This document shows, piece by piece, positions 48,508 through 57,004 of a DNA stretch of 64,000 nucleotides. Under the pieces are notes generated by a model. The model saw only the letters and a program-made list of their open reading frames with translations. It made no database searches and was not told where the DNA came from. Position numbers and translations under genes: made by a program. How positions within the stretch are numbered: position 1 is the first letter of the stretch; each line of letters begins with the position of its first letter. Source of the DNA: Cytophagales bacterium (lineage in GTDB: Bacteria > Bacteroidota > Bacteroidia > Cytophagales > Cyclobacteriaceae); contig JAFLBR010000021.1 in assembly GCA_017303795.1 (NCBI GenBank), forward strand, positions 1-64,000, read 5' to 3'.

Positions 48508-49128
48508 TCAGGATTTAAAAATTCCTTTTTGAATAAGAGCTTCCCTTAATTGCTCAGGCGATTGAAAGTGAATACCGGGCATACCTACTTCTTGCCCACC
48601 ATTAATATTGCGCAAGTTATCATCAATAAATAATGCTTCCGCGGGATTGATGTTATAGCGATCAAAAAGAATCTGAAAAAATTCTGGAAACGGCTTGCGG
48701 GTTTTTTCATGGCCCGAAACCACAATGCCTTCAAACCAATGAAGGAACTCAAATTTCTCTAATGCCCACGGAAACGTTTCGGTTGACCAATTGGTGAGGG
48801 CGTAAAGTTTATACTTTTTCGAATCGCGAATTTCTCTCAGGATATCAACCGTGCCTTGTATTGGGCCATTCATGGTTTCTTGCCAGCGGCCATACCATGC
48901 GCGAATGGGAACTTCATGCTCTGGAAATTTTGCAAGCAGTTCTGCTGTTGCTTCTTCGAATGAACGGCCAGCATCTTGCTTCTCGTTCCAATCGTGTGTA
49001 CAGATGTTTTCCAAAAACCAGGTAACTTCTTCTTCGGTTTTAAAAATTTTACGATACAGGTAGCGCGGGTTCCAATCAATCAGTACTGCGCCAAGATCAA
49101 ATACAATTGTGTTTACAGTAGTTGGCAT
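48508..49128 (-). CDS. HAD-superfamily phosphatase (YihX-like)
   Basis: 206 residues. HAD motif I VFDLGAVLIDWNPRYLY, cap, motif II-like YALTNWSTETF, motif III Lys in HEKTRKPFPE, motif IV LFIDDNLRNINGG. Fits the IA-like YihX group, which dephosphorylates sugar phosphates. The TA toxin gene is 1 bp upstream on the same strand. Confidence 0.85.
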   Translation of the reverse strand: MPTTVNTIVFDLGAVLIDWNPRYLYRKIFKTEEEVTWFLENICTHDWNEKQDAGRSFEEATAELLAKFPEHEVPIRAWYGRWQETMNGPIQGTVDILREIRDSKKYKLYALTNWSTETFPWALEKFEFLHWFEGIVVSGHEKTRKPFPEFFQILFDRYNINPAEALFIDDNLRNINGGQEVGMPGIHFQSPEQLREALIQKGIFKS

Positions 49129-49129
49129 A

Positions 49130-49471
49130 TTAGTTTATAGCTTCGATGCGGTCAATAAATACATTCACCAATTTATAGTCTTTGTTAAGCCGGATTACTT
49201 CCGGCCAAACTTGAGTCATACGATTGAAAAAATCTTTCATTTTAAGATTGCCGAATCTTAAATGAATAACTTTTGGGGGTGGGGCTTGCAACAGCATTCG
49301 ATTTGAAAAATCACTGTCTTTAGAAATAATTGTTAAACTATGTTCTTGTGCATATTTCCATATTGCAGAATCCTTCCAGGTGTCATCAATATCAAACTGA
49401 TGAATGTAATCAGGATCATTCCATATTGAAAAGTAGTAGGGTAGATTTACGTCAACTAAAAATCTTGGCAT
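49130..49471 (-). CDS. DUF5615 PIN-like toxin
   Basis: 113 residues, normal for the family. PIN/Mut7-like start MPRFLVDVNLPYYFS with the acidic active-site Asp residues, then WKYAQEHSLTIISKDSDFSNRM, where D and D of the second acidic pair sit. Predicted Mg2+-dependent RNase. Follows the DUF433 antitoxin gene by one base; HAD gene after it also by one base. Confidence 0.85.
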   Translation of the reverse strand: MPRFLVDVNLPYYFSIWNDPDYIHQFDIDDTWKDSAIWKYAQEHSLTIISKDSDFSNRMLLQAPPPKVIHLRFGNLKMKDFFNRMTQVWPEVIRLNKDYKLVNVFIDRIEAIN

Positions 49472-49472
49472 A

Positions 49473-49703
49473 CTAAGCCAGTTCTTTGATGATGTAATTA
49501 TGGTTCATAAGATTGGAGGCGAACCGAAGACAAGCATCAATGTCAGCAGCTTCTAATGAAGGATATTGTTTTAGAATTTCTTCTCTACTCTCGCCAGCAC
49601 TTAAATACTCCAGAATAGTATTAACTGTTATTCGTTTACCGCGAATAACAGGCTTACCATTGCAAATGGACTCGTCAATAACTATTCTCTCTTCTAAAGT
49701 CAT
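49473..49703 (-). CDS. DUF433 antitoxin
   Basis: 76 residues, typical of DUF433: ERIVIDESICNGKPVIRGKRITVNTILEYLSAGESREEILKQYP with its winged-helix core. Represses its own operon and neutralises the toxin (49130-49471). Start at 49703 follows no overlapping gene; 21 bp separate it from the esterase stop. Confidence 0.88.
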   Translation of the reverse strand: MTLEERIVIDESICNGKPVIRGKRITVNTILEYLSAGESREEILKQYPSLEAADIDACLRFASNLMNHNYIIKELA

Positions 49704-49724
49704 AATTCTGAATGGTAAATGTAA

Positions 49725-50549
49725 CTAAACTTTTTGAGCAGAAGGGGAAAAAGCCCACTTCAAAAACTCCGGCAAGGCCCGGCCCCACGTGGGTAAATCA
49801 TGGGCCCCATCGGGCAATTCTAAATATTGAATATCATGAAAAGGCCGATATCCTTTTTTAGTAAGCTCAACAATCAGATCCAACGTATCATCAATCGAGT
49901 CAATCACGCCATTTTTATTCCGATCACTTTGTTCATCCAGCAGGCCGGTTTGAAACCAGAACTTTAGTCCCGCCTTGTACTTTCCTTTTCGGATTTGCTG
50001 ATGCATAATTCTATCGTACTGCTCAGAATAAAACCTGCTGGCCGAATCGCGCTTGCGCCACCAGAACGATCCGCTAAAAGCACCAACCTTGCCAAAGTAA
50101 TCGCTGTGCCAGGCAATATCCATTGCCGAAAGCCCGCCAAGTGAAAATCCGCCAATAGCCCGTTGAGTTGGAGTTTTTGTAATGGCGTAGCGATATTCCA
50201 GATACGGAATAAGTTCGGTCATCATAAAACGGGTGTATGCCTTTGCTTTACTACCCCGCTTCTTAAAATCTGATTTAGCAGCCACCCCATATTCCTGCAT
50301 CCGGTCGCCAGCATGCACCGCCACCACGATAACTTCACTTATTTCCTCCCGGTGAACGAGGTGCTCAACGGTCTTTTTTAAGCCAATAGCTTCGGCATCC
50401 TGACCATCATTTAAGATTAAAAGTGGGTAAGGGCCATTGGTTTGGGCATACTGTGGCGGAAGCAGAATCTCCACCATGGTGTCGCGCCCCAGCAGCTTGG
50501 AATGTATATCGGTAAGTTTTTCGGGGCGATAATGGGCAACCTGCGACAA
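49725..50549 (-). CDS. esterase (PF00756), divergent from the ligase operon
   Basis: 274 residues from a TTG at 50549 (no in-frame ATG before residue 25). Alpha/beta hydrolase of the enterochelin-esterase type: LLILNDGQDAEAIGL near residue 45, GGFSLGGLSAMDIAW with nucleophile Ser near 138, Asp acid candidate in the QTGLLDEQSDRN stretch and His in DGAHDLPTW. No signal peptide, so cytoplasmic. Head-to-head with the next gene, 90 bp apart, and probably linked to the operon from 50640. Confidence 0.8.
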   Translation of the reverse strand: MSQVAHYRPEKLTDIHSKLLGRDTMVEILLPPQYAQTNGPYPLLILNDGQDAEAIGLKKTVEHLVHREEISEVIVVAVHAGDRMQEYGVAAKSDFKKRGSKAKAYTRFMMTELIPYLEYRYAITKTPTQRAIGGFSLGGLSAMDIAWHSDYFGKVGAFSGSFWWRKRDSASRFYSEQYDRIMHQQIRKGKYKAGLKFWFQTGLLDEQSDRNKNGVIDSIDDTLDLIVELTKKGYRPFHDIQYLELPDGAHDLPTWGRALPEFLKWAFSPSAQKV

Positions 50550-50639
50550 GAATGAAATAATTAAATTCGATAGTTAATTTAAAAGGCATTTCCGATTTTG
50601 AACAGAAAATTACCGTTGCAAAAATAAGAACTTAAGCCT

Positions 50640-51350
50640 ATGCCGCACGAACATTATCACAAATGGTACTCGCCACGCCTCAGTCGCGATATTGAAGTGC
50701 TGAGTTTTGGCACGCGTGGCTATCCAGTAATCTTGTTCCCAACCTCTATGGGGCATTTTAACGAGAACAAAGACTTTAAATTAATCGATAGCGTAAATTG
50801 GTTTTTAGATGAAGGCCTGGTTAAAATCTATTGCGTAGATGGCATTGATGAAATGAGTTGGTACAATAAAAATATTCATCCAGCCGATCGGGTGCGTAAT
50901 CACATCTGGTACGATCTCATGCTGCTGGATGAACTGGTGCCATTGGCGCAACACGAAACCGGAGTAAGACGCGTGGCCACTGCTGGCTGTAGCTTTGGTG
51001 GCTACCATGCAACCAACTTTGCATTTAAACATCCCGAGGTGGTGAAGTACGTATTTAACATGGGCGCAGCTTTCGATATAAAAAGCCAGTTGGATGGTTA
51101 TTATGATGATAACGTCTACTTCAACAACCCGATGGATTTTATTCCGCACGCACACAATCCTTATTTTGCCGATATGTACGTGGTGCTAGGTACCGGCACA
51201 CACGATATGTGTTGGGATGCAAATGTGAAAATGGCCAATATTCTGCAAAACAAAGGAGTAAACTATTGGTTGGATGTGCGGCCTAATGCACCGCACGATT
51301 GGCCCGCGTGGCGCGAAATGTTTCCACATTATTTATCGCTTATAAAATAA
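50640..51350 (+). CDS. esterase-family protein, first gene of the ligase operon
   Basis: 236 residues. PF00756-like alpha/beta hydrolase: YPVILFPTSMGHFNENKDFKL near residue 30, nucleophile Ser in ATAGCSFGGYHATNFAF near 120, a candidate acid in YVVLGTGTHDMCWD and His in NAPHDWPAW. No signal peptide. The ATP-grasp gene starts 43 bp later. Could cleave an ester in the product or release an intermediate. Confidence 0.8.
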   Translation: MPHEHYHKWYSPRLSRDIEVLSFGTRGYPVILFPTSMGHFNENKDFKLIDSVNWFLDEGLVKIYCVDGIDEMSWYNKNIHPADRVRNHIWYDLMLLDELVPLAQHETGVRRVATAGCSFGGYHATNFAFKHPEVVKYVFNMGAAFDIKSQLDGYYDDNVYFNNPMDFIPHAHNPYFADMYVVLGTGTHDMCWDANVKMANILQNKGVNYWLDVRPNAPHDWPAWREMFPHYLSLIK

Positions 51351-51393
51351 CAGCTTAAAAAAGTTAAACTATTTATCTTAAACTCTTAAGTGT

Positions 51394-52416
51394 ATGAAAA
51401 AGATCGGAATACTACACGGCATGGAACGCTCCTTCCCCGAGGCGTTTGTAGAACGCATTAACAAAATGGGATTGAAAGATATTAAAGCCGAGCCGGTTCT
51501 GGTAGATATGGTGAGCCAGGCAGAGCCAACCGATTACGCGGTAATCATCGATCGTATTTCGCAGGATGTTCCGTTTTACCGGGCGTATTTAAAAAATGCA
51601 GCTATCTCGGGTACAGCGGTAATCAATAATCCGTTTTGGTGGAGTGCCGATGAAAAGTTTTTTAACAATGCTTTGGCTGTTAAGATTGGTGTGCCCGTTC
51701 CTAAAACCGTAATCCTTCCATCGCACGAGCGCCCAACTGATACGGGCGAAAATTCTTTCAGCAACCTGAAGTTTCCATTGAGTTGGGAAAAAATCTTTGA
51801 ACACATTGGCTGGCCTGCGTATATGAAACCACATGCCGGTGGAGGTTGGAAGAGTGTGTATAAGCTCAACAACATGGACGATTTCTTTAAAGCATATGCC
51901 GAAACCAACCAATTGGTAATGATGCTGCAGGAAGAAATTATTTTTGAAGACTACTTCCGGTGTTATTGCCTGGGCAGAAAGTATGTGCGCATTATGCAAT
52001 ACGAACCCCGCAATCCACATCACTTAAGGTACCAGAGCAACAATGGTCCCGCATCCGAAAAGATGTTGAAGAAAGTACATGATTACGTGCTTGACTTATG
52101 CAATGCATTAGGGTATGATTTTAATACAGTAGAGATGGCGGTGCGCAATGGCGTTCCGTATGCCATCGACTTCTGTAACCCAGCACCCGATGCCGAGGTT
52201 ACATCGGTAGGTCAGGAAAATTTTGATTGGGTAGTTGAACATGCAGCTAAAATGGCAGTAGAGCGGGCGCAAGTTCAAAAGCCGGGCAAAGACAATCTTA
52301 CCTGGGGAACATTTGTTACCAGTTCGGTTGCATCGTTTGAGGCTGGTGTAGTAAAGCCAAAAGCAGCCAAGGTTGCCGCGCCCAAAGAAACAAAACCAAA
52401 ATCATCGAAGAAGTAG
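51394..52416 (+). CDS. ATP-grasp ligase
   Basis: 340 residues. ATP-grasp features: YMKPHAGGGWKSVYK (phosphate loop, K145), MMLQEEIIFEDYFR, and metal-ligand pattern VEMAVRNGVPYAIDFCNPAPDAE with E247, D259 and N262. The N-terminal 100 residues form the pre-ATP-grasp domain. The Lys/Ala-rich C-terminal tail is unusual and may be a flexible linker. Expected to form an amide bond from a carboxylate via acyl-phosphate. Second gene of the operon. Confidence 0.82.
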   Translation: MKKIGILHGMERSFPEAFVERINKMGLKDIKAEPVLVDMVSQAEPTDYAVIIDRISQDVPFYRAYLKNAAISGTAVINNPFWWSADEKFFNNALAVKIGVPVPKTVILPSHERPTDTGENSFSNLKFPLSWEKIFEHIGWPAYMKPHAGGGWKSVYKLNNMDDFFKAYAETNQLVMMLQEEIIFEDYFRCYCLGRKYVRIMQYEPRNPHHLRYQSNNGPASEKMLKKVHDYVLDLCNALGYDFNTVEMAVRNGVPYAIDFCNPAPDAEVTSVGQENFDWVVEHAAKMAVERAQVQKPGKDNLTWGTFVTSSVASFEAGVVKPKAAKVAAPKETKPKSSKK

Positions 52417-52443
52417 TTATAAGATTTAACTGTTAGTTGGCTT

Positions 52444-53541
52444 ATGGAAACCTTTACACTGGGTGTTGAAGAAGAATACATGGTGATTGATCCGCATACG
52501 CGCGAACTCACCTCACACGATCAGAAGATAGTTGAACTGGCTGCACACATTATAAAAGATAGTGTGAAAGCAGAAATGCATCAGGCGGTGGTGGAGGTAG
52601 GCACCGGCATCTGCAAAGATGTAACACAAGCCTATCACGAAATCGCAACATTGCGCAAAGTAGTAGGCGAAGTTGCCGGAACGCTGGGATTAAAAATCGG
52701 AGCTTCGGGCACGCACCCGTTTTCGCATTGGAGTAAACAGTTGATTACACCCAACCCGCGGTACGATGAAATTGTGCAAGAGATGCAGGAAGCTGCACGA
52801 TCAAACTTAATTTTTGGATTGCATGTGCATGTGGGCATTAAGGATAAGAATATGGCTATTCATATTCAAAATACCGTGCGTTACTTTTTACCACACGTGT
52901 ATGCGCTAAGTTGTAACTCACCTTTCTGGGAAGGTCGCAACACAGGCTTCAAATCTTTTCGTACAAAAGTGTTTGATAAATTTCCACGTACGGGTATTCC
53001 CGATCGTTTTGAAAACTGGGATGACTTCAAAAACTATGTAAACCTGCTCATCAAAACCAATTGTATTGATAACGCTAAAAAAATCTGGTGGGATGTACGC
53101 GTGCATCCATTCTTCGATACCATTGAGTTTCGCATTTGCGATGTGCCCATGCGGGTAGAAGAAACTATTGCAATTACAGCCGTGTTTCAGGCGCTGGTAG
53201 TGAAGTTGTATAAGTTGCGTTTGCAGAACATGAGTTTTATTATGTACACGCGCGCACTCATCAACGAAAATAAATGGCGCGCTTCGCGGTATGGATTAGA
53301 TGGTCGGTTGATTGACTTTGGAAAACAAGTTGAGTTAGATACACGCGAATTGATTGTTGAATTATTAGAGTTTGTAGATGATGTGGTGGATGAACTTGGC
53401 AGCCGCAGTGCGATCAACTATATTCGCACCATATTAGAGCATGGTACCGGTGCCGACAGACAATTAGCTGTGTTTAAGGAAACCGGAAGTTTGGAAAAAG
53501 TAGTGGATTACATAACAGACGAAACCTCGCGCGGACTTTAA
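52444..53541 (+). CDS. GCS2-type carboxylate-amine ligase
   Basis: 365 residues. Starts with the GCS2 signature LGVEEEYMVIDPHTRELT (residues 5-22) used by gamma-glutamyl-cysteine ligase-like enzymes such as YbdK, followed by VVEVGTGICKD, GASGTHPFSHW and GLHVHVGIKDKN. Predicted to couple an amine to a carboxylate (often glutamate gamma-carboxylate) with ATP. It is 27 bp from the previous gene, and the next starts 10 bp after it. Confidence 0.9.
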   Translation: METFTLGVEEEYMVIDPHTRELTSHDQKIVELAAHIIKDSVKAEMHQAVVEVGTGICKDVTQAYHEIATLRKVVGEVAGTLGLKIGASGTHPFSHWSKQLITPNPRYDEIVQEMQEAARSNLIFGLHVHVGIKDKNMAIHIQNTVRYFLPHVYALSCNSPFWEGRNTGFKSFRTKVFDKFPRTGIPDRFENWDDFKNYVNLLIKTNCIDNAKKIWWDVRVHPFFDTIEFRICDVPMRVEETIAITAVFQALVVKLYKLRLQNMSFIMYTRALINENKWRASRYGLDGRLIDFGKQVELDTRELIVELLEFVDDVVDELGSRSAINYIRTILEHGTGADRQLAVFKETGSLEKVVDYITDETSRGL

Positions 53542-53551
53542 ATTAAAAGCA

Positions 53552-54391
53552 TTGATTCAGGAAAATCAGATCAAAATAGCCGTGCTCGATTTATACGAGG
53601 GTGAAGCAAACGAAGGCATGCGCGGCATTAAACAATTGATCTCAAGTTTCGCAAGCGACTGTCAACTCAACATTGTTTATCACATCTTTGATGTGCGCAG
53701 TAAAAATGAAGTGCCCGATTTAAGTTATGATGCTTACATCTCATCGGGTGGGCCAGGCAGCCCGATAGACAGTGCCGGTTCTTTATGGGAAGAACGCTAC
53801 TTCGGTTTGATGGATTCCATCAAAGATCATAACGAACAACACCCCTATAATAAAAAGCATGTGCTGCTCATCTGTCATAGTTTTCAGATTTATTGTCGCT
53901 ATTACGGCTTGGGAACTGTTTCAAAACGAAAGTCAACATCGTTTGGAGTAATGCCTATTCATAAAACTAAATCGGGCAAGCTCGATCAGATTTTAAAATC
54001 GCTTGGCGACCCGATGTGGGCTGTTGATTCGCGCGATTATCAGATTACACAACCCGATGCTGAAAAAATTGAAGCAGAAGGCGGAGCTCTTTTATGCATT
54101 GAAAAGCACCGGCCTCATATTGATTTAGAGCGGGCAGTAATGGCCATTCGTTTTAACGATGCTATTATCGGCATGCAATTTCATCCCGAAGCCGATGCGG
54201 TGGGGATGCGCATGTATTTGCTGCGCGAAGACAAAAAAGCTTTAGTGATTGAAAAGCATGGTGAAAAAAAATATTGGGAGATGTTGAACCACCTCAACGA
54301 TCCGGATAAAATTATGCTTACGTATGCTACGGTGGTGCCGCGGTTTTTAATGTTGGCCTTGCGTAACCATTTAAGTTCAGTCCCGCTATGA
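53552..54391 (+). CDS. class I glutamine amidotransferase
   Basis: 279 residues from a TTG at 53552. Class I GATase: YISSGGPGSPID (oxyanion strand), nucleophile C108 in LLICHSFQ, and H211/E213 in MQFHPEAD, so the triad is intact. May hydrolyse a gamma-glutamyl amide or feed ammonia to a partner. ATGA overlap with the next gene. The C-terminal about 60 residues are extra helices. Confidence 0.87.
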   Translation: MIQENQIKIAVLDLYEGEANEGMRGIKQLISSFASDCQLNIVYHIFDVRSKNEVPDLSYDAYISSGGPGSPIDSAGSLWEERYFGLMDSIKDHNEQHPYNKKHVLLICHSFQIYCRYYGLGTVSKRKSTSFGVMPIHKTKSGKLDQILKSLGDPMWAVDSRDYQITQPDAEKIEAEGGALLCIEKHRPHIDLERAVMAIRFNDAIIGMQFHPEADAVGMRMYLLREDKKALVIEKHGEKKYWEMLNHLNDPDKIMLTYATVVPRFLMLALRNHLSSVPL

Positions 54392-55575
54392 TAACCAGCG
54401 CCCGCCAGCAGTTCAATCAGCAATTCTCGGAAGCGAAGTACAAAGATTTTATTGCTGATCTGGACCGGGAGTTTAATTATAAGATTCCATTTCGCGTTGC
54501 AGAAAGCCCGGTGTTTGTAGGGAAAGAGTTTAGTGCAAAACTTTTTAAAGCTGCTAACGAGATTATCGATGTAATTGTGCAGCCCGAATTCAAAACAAAA
54601 ATGAAGGGCGCACTTCCGGTAAATCTTCATGTTCCCAACGAAACCAATAACTCACTCTTTATTGCACTGGATTTTGCGGTGTGCCGCGAAAACGGTGAAC
54701 AAGTACCACGGCTGATTGAAATGCAAGGCTTTCCGTCTTTGTTTGGCTATCAGGATTTTTTGGGGAATAAATTCCGCGAACATTATCGCATTCCTGATAA
54801 TTTGCATTTTCATTTCGGATTAAACTCAACCGAATATTGGCAACACATCCGCAAGGCCATTGTAGGAAATCATAATCCCGAAAATGTAATTCTACTTGAA
54901 ATCAATCCGCTGCAACAAAACACGGCTATCGATTTTCTGATTACGCAAAAACATCTGGACATTGCACCCGTTCACTTAGGCGTTATTATTATCAAAGGCA
55001 GAAAATTATTTTATAAAAAGAATGGAATAGAAATCCCGGTACACCGGATTTACAATCGCGTAATCTTTGATGAATTGCTCGCACAAAAAAACCTGAAAAC
55101 ACAATTCCACTTAACAGAAGATGTAGATGTTGAATGGGCCGGACACCCCAACTGGTTTTTTTATATCAGCAAATACACCATGCCTTTTGTGCAGAGTGAT
55201 GCCGTGCCCGAATGCAAATTTTTGCATGAGTACACTACCTGGCCAACAAATCTTGAAGATTATGTGCTGAAGCCTCTCTTTTCTTTTTCGGGAAGTGGTG
55301 TAATTTTTCATGTAACGCAAGCCGATCTGGATGCGATACCCGCGGCAGAGCGTAAGAACTTTATGTTACAACGTAAAGTACAGTACGAACCCGTTATTCA
55401 AGCCCCCGATGGTTTGGTGAAAACAGAAATTCGCTTGTTGTTTATCTGGAACGAAGGCGAAGCCCGCCCCCAACTCATCACCAACCTCGCCCGTCTTAGC
55501 CGGGGAGAAATGATTGGTGTTAAATTTAATAAAGACAAAACCTGGGTGGGCGGTTCAGTTTGTTTCTTTGAGTAA
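54388..55575 (+). CDS. ATP-grasp-like enzyme
   Basis: 395 residues. Second ATP-grasp-type protein: VPRLIEMQGFPSLFGYQ near residue 107-122, and DYVLKPLFSFSGSGVIF (about 291-307) with K295, FMLQRKVQYEPVI and TEIRLLFIWNEGEA, the core strands seen in circularly permuted ATP-grasp enzymes. Catalytic order in the family differs from the ATP-grasp at 51394, suggesting a second bond-forming step. Overlaps both neighbours. Confidence 0.7.
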   Translation: MITSARQQFNQQFSEAKYKDFIADLDREFNYKIPFRVAESPVFVGKEFSAKLFKAANEIIDVIVQPEFKTKMKGALPVNLHVPNETNNSLFIALDFAVCRENGEQVPRLIEMQGFPSLFGYQDFLGNKFREHYRIPDNLHFHFGLNSTEYWQHIRKAIVGNHNPENVILLEINPLQQNTAIDFLITQKHLDIAPVHLGVIIIKGRKLFYKKNGIEIPVHRIYNRVIFDELLAQKNLKTQFHLTEDVDVEWAGHPNWFFYISKYTMPFVQSDAVPECKFLHEYTTWPTNLEDYVLKPLFSFSGSGVIFHVTQADLDAIPAAERKNFMLQRKVQYEPVIQAPDGLVKTEIRLLFIWNEGEARPQLITNLARLSRGEMIGVKFNKDKTWVGGSVCFFE

Positions 55576-56150
55576 TGTCCAGTCATCACATTGTGCGCGA
55601 AAATCAGGAACCCGTGCTTGTCATTTTTGATGCGCACGCAATTCCCTTTGAAAGAGTACAAGAGCTATTGGAGTGGATGCCTACAATTGTCGTTTTGTAT
55701 ACGCAAGCAGAAATCGTATTGGGTTGGGGCATTAAAATAGATGTGGTGTTAGTTCCCGCAGGTGAAGAAAGCAGTTGGGCAGAACGAACAAGAGACCAAC
55801 AACCCATTGAAGTAATTTCATTTCAGGCTAATGAACCTCCGCTCAATAAAGCCATTTCACTTTTACAATCCCGAAACATACCGGCCGTCAACTGGCTGGT
55901 GAAAGAGTTACAGACACTTACTGGTTTAATTGATTTTATTGGCGATGCTGAAGTGTTTGTTGATAACAAATGCTGGAGCAGAGTAAAATCAGGTCGATTT
56001 GAAAAGTGGTTACCGGTTGGTGTCGTACTGCAAATTTTCCCTGAGCAGGCTTGTTCTGAAATTGCTGATGGAAAGTTTATAGTGGAGCGTGATGGAGTAG
56101 TGGCACTACAAGGCAAGCAAGTGTTTTGGGTAGGAGAGGAAGTTGTATGA
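55575..56150 (+). CDS. small terminal protein of the ligase operon, thiamine-pyrophosphokinase-like
   Basis: 191 residues. ATG overlaps the previous stop (TAATG), so coupled. Reading of VVLYTQAEIVLGWGIKIDVVLVPAGE and of a C-terminal lobe with VVLQIFPEQACSE and FIVERDGVVALQGKQVFWVG resembles the two-lobe arrangement of thiamine pyrophosphokinase, but the catalytic acidic motif is not seen and the first lobe is short. Function not assigned; possibly binds the product or a nucleotide. Confidence 0.5.
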   Translation: MSSHHIVRENQEPVLVIFDAHAIPFERVQELLEWMPTIVVLYTQAEIVLGWGIKIDVVLVPAGEESSWAERTRDQQPIEVISFQANEPPLNKAISLLQSRNIPAVNWLVKELQTLTGLIDFIGDAEVFVDNKCWSRVKSGRFEKWLPVGVVLQIFPEQACSEIADGKFIVERDGVVALQGKQVFWVGEEVV

Positions 56151-56158
56151 ATGTTGTT

Positions 56159-57004
56159 TCATAAATTGTCAAATAACTCTCCCCAAACCACTCTTTCCTT
56201 CCCATTCCAATCCTTCAAAACAGTTACACCTTCAAAACTATTAGCTTTCAGAGTTTCACAAATCTCTTTTGCGTAATGTTCATTAATTTCAAACCATAAT
56301 GAACCACCTGGCTTTAAGGCCTGGTGTGCGCGTTGGGCAATAACCTTGTAAAATAAAAGCGCATCTTCTCCAGGTGCAAACAACGCGGTGTGCGGTTCGT
56401 AGTTCAGCACGTTCGGTTTCATGTTTTGTTTTTCCTGTTGCGAGATGTAAGGCGGATTGCTCACAATCAAGTCAAATTTTGGGGTGATGGGTTCCGTTAA
56501 AATATCCTGCTGACTAAACGTAACAGCAGCATTTAATCGCATTGCATTTTCCTGCGCTACTTTAAGCGCATTCAAACTCACATCAACAGCATGCACCTCT
56601 GCAGGTGTTTCCAAGGCTAATGAAATTGCAATACAACCGCTTCCGGTGCCAACATCTAAAATAGCAGGTTGGTCAATTGATTTTACGTGTCTGATAATTT
56701 CGTGTACTAATAACTCCGTTTCGGGTCGTGGAATCAACACATCGCGTGTAACCCGAAAACTTCTTCCAAAAAAATCAGCCTCACCTAAAATGTATTGAAC
56801 GGGTTCGTGGGTGTTAATTCGGTCAATGTAAGCATCAACCTCGGCTTGGTTAACGGTAATTTGTTTCTGCGTGAGAATATGGGTTCGGGTGAGGTTCCAT
56901 TTTTTATCCAGCAACAGGTAAGCAATGCTTTCTATTTCCGCTTTGTCTTCGGGCAGGTTAATACGCTTTACTACTTCGCTGAAAAGTTCTTTGGAATTGG
57001 TCAT
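56159..57004 (-). CDS. prmC: peptide chain release factor N5-glutamine methyltransferase
   Basis: 281 residues. Helical N-terminal domain, then a SAM-binding domain with LDVGTGSGCIAISLA and the NPPY catalytic motif (SNPPYISQQEKQN). It methylates the GGQ glutamine of release factors 1 and 2. Divergent from ribD, separated by about 35 bp. Confidence 0.94.
   Translation of the reverse strand: MTNSKELFSEVVKRINLPEDKAEIESIAYLLLDKKWNLTRTHILTQKQITVNQAEVDAYIDRINTHEPVQYILGEADFFGRSFRVTRDVLIPRPETELLVHEIIRHVKSIDQPAILDVGTGSGCIAISLALETPAEVHAVDVSLNALKVAQENAMRLNAAVTFSQQDILTEPITPKFDLIVSNPPYISQQEKQNMKPNVLNYEPHTALFAPGEDALLFYKVIAQRAHQALKPGGSLWFEINEHYAKEICETLKANSFEGVTVLKDWNGKERVVWGELFDNL

What the first reader, a model, noticed from the sequence alone, without database searches (positions are those of the whole stretch)
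49725..56150. Amidoligase operon that may build an undescribed amide-linked metabolite
Six same-strand genes in tight order, two of the junctions being ATGA and TAATG overlaps: esterase, ATP-grasp, GCS2 carboxylate-amine ligase, class I GATase, a second ATP-grasp-like enzyme and a small terminal protein, with a second esterase divergent 90 bp away. Three independent ATP-dependent bond-forming enzymes plus an amidotransferase and esterases is a good recipe for a modified peptide or gamma-glutamyl amine, and no transporter or known pathway gene is present to name the product. Comparative studies of amidoligases have predicted such clusters, but I know of no defined product for this set.
Basis: partly seen in the sequence, partly recalled or inferred. 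Interest (0 to 1): 0.75.

Follow-up and report, generated by a model that had tools for sequence, protein, structure and literature searches.

The report
Widespread uncharacterised multi-ligase amide operon
A set of three unrelated amide-bond-forming enzymes, often found with hydrolases, is inherited together across many Bacteroidota even when its genes are scattered, which points to a common but still unidentified small amide-linked compound.

Summary
In detail: genes, order, the ATGA and TAATG overlaps and the 90-bp divergent spacing are as described. Two corrections. G (terminal gene) is fast-evolving, seen only in near relatives, not core. E, the "amidotransferase", is more likely an amide hydrolase: an unrelated M29-like protein sits in its place in other clusters.

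F matches no Pfam family, but its confident model (pLDDT 91) resembles eukaryotic-type glutathione synthetases, glutathionylspermidine synthetases and YgiC/YjfC. C is a LysX/RimK/Ddl-like ATP-grasp; D is a YbdK/glutamate-cysteine-ligase relative.

C and F co-occur across the phylum: 110 of 114 F-positive genomes (of 395) have C. D is in 54 of 58 F-positive genomes tested and 0 of 10 with neither, often unlinked. In several genomes without F, a circularly permuted ATP-grasp lies between C and E.

Best reading: an NRPS-independent pathway in which D makes a gamma-glutamyl amide, F adds an amine in the manner of glutathione or peptide-spermidine synthesis, C adds another residue, and hydrolases trim or recycle. 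Product and order are unknown. BshC is present with or without the cluster, so a replacement thiol is unlikely. The main earlier survey of such clusters could not be read.

The parts
49725..50549 (-). A: PF00756 serine esterase, divergent; often beside the cluster
   Evidence: Pfam 105 bits; tblastn-detected in 20 of 36 named loci, two of them weak (25% in L028, 27% in L034)
50640..51350 (+). B: PF00756-type serine hydrolase, very conserved
   Evidence: Pfam 32.7 bits; 21 of 36 named loci; dN/dS about 0.015-0.028
51394..52416 (+). C: LysX/ArgX/RimK/Ddl-like ATP-grasp ligase (core)
   Evidence: NCBIfam rimK_fam E 4.8e-7, below its cutoff; PDB profile hit to D-Ala-D-Ala ligase E 0.0011; model pLDDT 76.5; Foldseek 540 hits at E<=1e-3, the 50 shown being Ddl/VanG, ArgX/LysX, RimK, the graspetide ligase PsnB and one synapsin
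52444..53541 (+). D: GCS2 / YbdK-type carboxylate-amine ligase (core)
   Evidence: PF04107 220 bits; PRK13515 532 bits over cutoff 371 and TIGR02050 307 over 176; PDB ybdK E 6e-66, plant glutamate-cysteine ligase E 5e-5
53552..54391 (+). E: class-I GATase-like Cys-His-Glu hydrolase
   Evidence: PF00117 40 bits; Cys108 and His211 in 25 of 25 rows, Glu213 in 24 of 25; position taken by an M29-like protein in other clusters
54388..55575 (+). F: eukaryotic-type glutathione synthetase / GspS / YgiC-fold ligase without a Pfam family (core)
   Evidence: No Pfam hit for the window protein; model pLDDT 91, pTM 0.90; all 21 Foldseek hits with E<=1e-3 are this superfamily
55575..56150 (+). G: small protein of unknown function, probably a passenger
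   Evidence: No family; among the loci fetched, found only in near relatives; dN/dS 0.13-0.18, like prmC; 2.1 kb from F in L021

Best explanation
The operon encodes an NRPS-independent assembly line for a small amide-linked compound. Inferred steps: D uses ATP to join the gamma-carboxyl of glutamate to an amine or amino acid (YbdK/GCL chemistry); F then activates the free carboxylate of that gamma-glutamyl product and couples an amine, as eukaryotic-type glutathione synthetase, homoglutathione synthetase, GspS and YgiC/YjfC do; C, a LysX/RimK/Ddl-like ATP-grasp, adds one more amino acid or supplies a dipeptide; E, or the M29-like metallohydrolase that replaces it, cleaves an amide bond to trim or recycle the conjugate; A and B are serine hydrolases acting on the compound or its esters. 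Shown here: families, folds, conservation and co-inheritance of C, D and F, and the positional swaps. Not shown: substrates, order of ligations, product.
For: Folds and families. Co-inheritance: C in 110 of 114 F-positive genomes among 395 (Fisher p 7e-68, not corrected for phylogeny); D in 54 of 58 F-positive, 4 of 12 C-only, 0 of 10 with neither. The genes are kept when scattered: A-B-C-D and E-F lie on different contigs of G094, and C and F are far apart in G411, G293, G231, G205 and others. E/F spacing is 50 bp or less in 56 of 61 distinct loci, 28 of them the 4-bp overlap. M29-like protein in E's place. YgiC/YjfC as peptidylpolyamine synthetases and hGSH synthetase as a gamma-glutamylcysteine + beta-alanine ligase: passage of PMC12568646.
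Against: 34 of the 54 F+D genomes in the 80-genome panel have no E, and only two of those have a strong M29-like match, so the hydrolase step is not universal. 24 of 134 C-positive genomes lack F. Three f8 genomes and G354 have F and C without D. F is only 9-14% identical to its structural matches, TM 0.46-0.63 by query length. C's model is of moderate confidence. Nothing shows that the three ligases act on one molecule.
Confidence: 0.55

Rival explanations
1. A low-molecular-weight thiol pathway: D is a glutamate-cysteine ligase and F or C a glutathione synthetase, making glutathione or a homologue.
For: D matches ybdK and, weakly, plant glutamate-cysteine ligases; F resembles yeast, human and soybean glutathione/homoglutathione synthetases.
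Against: BshC (bacillithiol) is in 40 of 40 F-positive and 38 of 40 negative genomes tested, the window's own included, so the cluster does not replace a missing thiol. D scores below the cutoff of every glutamate--cysteine ligase model listed. Glutathione synthesis needs no third ligase.
Confidence: 0.15
2. Amine use by gamma-glutamylation: D glutamylates an amine and E, a class-I-GATase-like hydrolase comparable to PuuD, later removes the glutamate.
For: D is a gamma-glutamyl-type ligase and E a GATase-fold Cys hydrolase. PuuD precedent is recalled. In L137 an FAD oxidase-type gene lies between B and C, and in L034 an aminotransferase lies beside F on the other strand.
Against: No oxidoreductase or aminotransferase in the window's cluster; C and F unexplained; E missing in 34 of 54 F+D genomes tested.
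Confidence: 0.12
3. Protein or carrier modification: C (RimK/LysX-like) and F add residues or polyamine to a protein, E or the M29-like protein removes them.
For: C's structural neighbours include RimK, also as a complex with RpsF, and LysX/ArgX acting on LysW.
Against: No LysW in the window's genome and no room for a small carrier gene between B and G (gaps of at most 43 bp); I noticed no recurrent candidate target beside the cluster, but the maps of relatives list only ORFs of 80 aa or more. D's relatives act on free amino acids (recalled).
Confidence: 0.1
4. E and F form a glutamine-dependent two-subunit amidotransferase that makes a terminal amide.
For: E/F genes overlap by 4 bp in 28 of 61 distinct loci and stay paired when A-B-C-D is elsewhere.
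Against: F occurs without E in 35 of 58 F genomes tested; E is replaced by a metallohydrolase; E occurs with another ligase where F is absent.
Confidence: 0.08

Closest known systems
Amidoligase gene clusters predicted by Iyer et al. 2009 (Mol Biosyst 5:1636); recalled, paper not held
   Same: Several unrelated ATP-dependent peptide ligases linked to peptidases in conserved neighbourhoods, no NRPS
   Different: Whether this exact set was listed there could not be checked; the phylum-wide unlinked co-inheritance, the E/M29-like swap and F's fold are measured here
Glutathione / homoglutathione synthesis with the eukaryotic-type synthetase
   Same: GCL-type ligase (D) plus eukaryotic-GS-fold ligase (F)
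   Different: Third ligase C; hydrolases; bacillithiol gene already present; F 9-13% identical to these synthetases and their effector relatives
YgiC/YjfC and glutathionylspermidine synthetase/amidase
   Same: F's fold; pairing of an amide-forming ligase with an amide hydrolase (E or the M29-like protein)
   Different: F is below any Pfam threshold for GSP_synth; hydrolase of another fold on a separate gene
E-64 pathway ligase Cp1B (fungal, NRPS-independent)
   Same: Standalone ATP-grasp of the same superfamily (hit 9cjn); stepwise amide bonds (abstract start)
   Different: Fungal; no GCS2 ligase or GATase-like partner known to me

Membership tests
GCS2 / YbdK carboxylate-amine ligase (D) | Pfam PF04107 and NCBIfam PRK13515 above cutoff | tested here: met
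   220 bits vs 21; 532 vs 371
GCS2 / YbdK carboxylate-amine ligase (D) | Glutamate gamma-carboxyl as donor, and which amine | not testable with these tools
   Needs assay
RimK/LysX-type ATP-grasp (C) | ATP-grasp fold | tested here: met
   Foldseek to Ddl/ArgX/RimK, E down to 8e-15, model pLDDT 76.5
RimK/LysX-type ATP-grasp (C) | NCBIfam rimK_fam or LysX score above cutoff | tested here: not met
   29.4 vs 143.4 and 28.4 vs 275.6 bits
RimK/LysX-type ATP-grasp (C) | LysW carrier (for LysX/ArgX) | tested here: not met
   No TIGR01206 match in the window's genome; the search rings in 4 of 14 control genomes
GspS / YgiC / eukaryotic glutathione synthetase (F) | Superfamily fold | tested here: met
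   21 of 21 hits at E<=1e-3
GspS / YgiC / eukaryotic glutathione synthetase (F) | Pfam GSP_synth or GSH synthetase above threshold | tested here: not met
   GSP_synth at E 0.013 in 1 of 24 members; none for the window protein
Class-I glutamine amidotransferase (E) | Pfam PF00117 and Cys-His-Glu triad | tested here: met
   40.4 bits vs 22.8; Cys and His 25 of 25, Glu 24 of 25
Class-I glutamine amidotransferase (E) | Canonical G-x-C-x-G-x-Q nucleophile elbow (motif recalled) | tested here: not met
   C-H-S-x-Q: Ser where Gly is expected in 25 of 25 rows, Gln kept in 25 of 25
Class-I glutamine amidotransferase (E) | Delivers ammonia to a synthetase partner | tested here: inconclusive
   Paired with F but dispensable and swapped
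Bacillithiol-replacing thiol pathway | Absence of bacillithiol genes in cluster-bearing genomes | tested here: not met
   BshC in 40 of 40 F-positive genomes tested
Known defence system | PADLOC match | tested here: not met
   0 of 8 proteins at E<=0.001
M29 metallopeptidase (E's stand-in in relatives) | PF02073 above cutoff, metal ligands kept | tested here: met
   50-64 bits vs 27 for three proteins; E196, E268, H294, Y301, H314, D316 invariant in 9 of 9 (ligand identities recalled)

The most novel reading that the evidence does not exclude
C, D and F make a so far undescribed gamma-glutamyl peptide-amine conjugate (for example a peptidyl polyamine) present in roughly a quarter of Bacteroidota species and some Verrucomicrobiota, working beside bacillithiol; an interchangeable hydrolase (E or the M29-like protein) takes the conjugate apart again, giving a reversible cycle like glutathionylspermidine synthetase/amidase but built from unrelated parts.
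Probability: 0.25. Interest if true: 0.82.

Novelty: new variant of a known kind. Interest (0 to 1): 0.62.

Why it matters
Two of the ligases (C and F) stay together, linked or not, in 110 of 395 sampled species of the phylum, and the third (D) accompanies F in 54 of 58 tested. That implies one shared product of real physiological use. The libraries searched (Pfam, NCBIfam, PADLOC) do not name the system, and it is testable by a simple deletion and metabolite comparison. F also defines a sequence family with no Pfam entry, and the swaps of E with an M29-like protein and of F with a circularly permuted ATP-grasp help tell which step each protein serves.

Tried and rejected
Sequence-only search of F against Pfam and PDB gave nothing firm (best YgiC E 0.044-0.093); the structure model settled the superfamily. 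G: no family in 16 relatives and a PDB hit at E 0.099 only; I first thought from memory that it resembled thiamine pyrophosphokinase, and no call supports that. A and B against PDB: only generic esterases. Rfam: none in 49000-57000. Promoter and terminator scans at chance level; the A-B spacer is conserved in near relatives but I name no promoter. Plasmids: no F relative. PADLOC: none. LysW carrier: none in the window's genome. Neighbours of unlinked C or F (aromatic amino acid lyase, amidohydrolase, outer-membrane efflux and others) were scanned for a few loci only and not followed up. E and the M29-like protein as strict alternatives covering all genomes: rejected, because 32 of 54 F+D genomes in the panel have neither. 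Bacillithiol replacement: rejected. ribD dN/dS against L005 and L012 is a misalignment artefact and was dropped. My longest-ORF caller picks wrong-strand ORFs in some loci (F in L139, C in L166 and L169, both C and E in L172), so counts are lower bounds. L042 and L128 duplicate L018 (same genome, G094) and L136 duplicates L034 (G535); one search recounts the E/F spacing without the duplicate L042.
Full report
What is there. The seven genes lie exactly as described. Pfam and NCBIfam name A and B as PF00756-type esterases, D as a GCS2/YbdK-type carboxylate-amine ligase and E as a class-I GATase relative; C has only sub-threshold RimK/LysX hits, F and G have none worth the name. The six + genes are closely packed: gaps 43, 27, 10 bp and overlaps of 4 and 1 bp.

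Conservation. A scan of named genomes gave 36 loci encoding F, 34 from Bacteroidota MAGs and two (L034, L035) from Verrucomicrobia-type MAGs. By tblastn, E is present in 33 of 36, C in 26, D in 24, B in 21 and A in 20, two of the A hits weak; several loci are cut by contig ends. The order A< B C D E F recurs. B, C and D evolve very slowly, E and F slowly, A faster, and G as fast as the flanking prmC (synonymous sites are near saturation, so the ratios are rough). G was found only in near relatives and is not counted as core.

Phylum-wide co-inheritance. In 148 genomes of the window's family F matches in 37 and C in 38. In 395 genomes of the phylum F matches in 115 and C in 141; after dropping 1 weak F and 7 weak C rows, 110 of 114 F genomes have C, against 24 C genomes without F and 257 with neither (Fisher p 7e-68, which ignores phylogeny). 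In a panel of 80 that I chose to over-represent distant families (58 of the 114 F genomes, 12 of the 24 C-only, 10 of the 257), D is in 54, 4 and 0. These genes are often far apart: in G094 A-B-[hydrolase]-C-D and E-F lie on different contigs, and in G293, G411, G231, G205 and others C and F are unlinked. Joint retention without linkage is the strongest sign that C, D and F serve one function. F also occurs in 10 of 240 genomes of the phylum of L034, one match marginal; there L136 (the genome of L034), L137 and L138 show A-B-C-D-[M29-like]-F, L137 with an FAD oxidase-type gene between B and C.

Folds. F was modelled from 24 sequences at mean pLDDT 91. All 21 PDB hits with E<=1e-3 are eukaryotic-type glutathione synthetases (including homoglutathione synthetase and synthetase-like nematode effectors), glutathionylspermidine synthetases, YgiC, YjfC or Cp1B, at 9-14% identity and TM 0.46-0.63. 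A weak YgiC profile match covers the ...W...YV.KP.FS... region. C was modelled from 17 sequences at pLDDT 76.5; the 50 of its 540 hits shown are D-Ala-D-Ala/D-Ser ligases, ArgX/LysX, RimK, PsnB and a synapsin. D aligns along its length with ybdK and in part with plant glutamate-cysteine ligase.

The E position. E keeps Cys108 and His211 in 25 of 25 rows and Glu213 in 24 of 25, but has C-H-S in all 25 where class-I amidotransferases have C-x-G (motif recalled). In other clusters the slot between D and F, or directly before F, is filled by an unrelated M29-like protein with invariant candidate metal ligands: L034, L035, L106, L112, L117, L118, L133, L137, L138, and by order also L139 and L144. 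No locus mapped holds both. In the 80-genome panel strong matches to this protein (over 500 bits) occur in 2 genomes, neither with E; weaker M29-like matches (20-124 bits) occur in 12 others, ten of which have E. E occurs in 23 of 58 F genomes, 10 of 12 C-only and 0 of 10 others. Two hydrolase folds in one slot fit an amide-cleaving role better than ammonia delivery. Against this, 32 of the 54 F+D genomes in the panel have neither E nor a strong M29-like match, so the step is optional or done by something else there.

A second architecture. In C-only genomes a protein related to circularly permuted ATP-grasps (PF14403: 37 bits over its cutoff of 32 in L150, below it in L151) lies between C and E in L150, L151, L165, L167, L170 and L171, and before E in L169: 7 of the 14 C-only genomes of which a locus was fetched. 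In all 10 C-only genomes of the panel with E, C and E are 1.4-1.8 kb apart (coordinates). C is thus the nearly constant element with exchangeable partner ligases.

Function. YgiC/YjfC are described as peptidylpolyamine synthetases and hGSH synthetase as joining gamma-glutamylcysteine and beta-alanine (passages of PMC12568646). With D as gamma-glutamyl ligase, D then F is the glutathione-style two-step; C adds a further residue. This order is inference. A replacement thiol is unlikely, as BshC is in 40 of 40 F genomes and 38 of 40 others tested (40 of the 114 and 40 of the 257), the window's genome included. A LysX-type carrier pathway is unlikely in this genome, which has no LysW match.

Prior work. 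Nine searches of the held library listed no paper whose title or abstract start describes this cluster; beyond listings I saw only passages of PMC12568646, PMC4431377 and PMC2922099. The main survey of such clusters (Iyer et al. 2009) is not held, so it may already list this neighbourhood. I therefore file it as a new variant of a known kind.

Noticed in passing
49130-49703: DUF433 + DUF5615 pair, the make-up of a VapBC-like toxin-antitoxin unit (recalled), directly beside A; by tblastn the DUF433 gene is seen in L004 and L008 but not in the other named loci.
   Followed up: no
L128 and L129 (G094, same genome as L018); L015, L017, L020, L033: E-F stays at the prmC-ribD site while A-B-C-D is elsewhere: a split operon with both halves kept in G094; for L015, L017, L020 and L033 only the E-F half was seen, in the fetched locus.
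   Followed up: partly
L009-L012, L037, L129 between B and C: Extra ~310-aa ORF between B and C in some relatives; in L010 it is an S33-type alpha/beta hydrolase, proline-iminopeptidase-like.
   Followed up: partly
L146, L147: In two genomes of one family an unlinked C lies beside an aromatic amino acid (histidine/phenylalanine-type) ammonia-lyase.
   Followed up: no
L150:13136-14314: A further ATP-grasp_4 protein follows the C-X-E cluster.
   Followed up: no
G182, G197, G268: Genomes with E also hold a weaker M29-like relative (116-124 bits), so the M29-like family is wider than the cluster.
   Followed up: no
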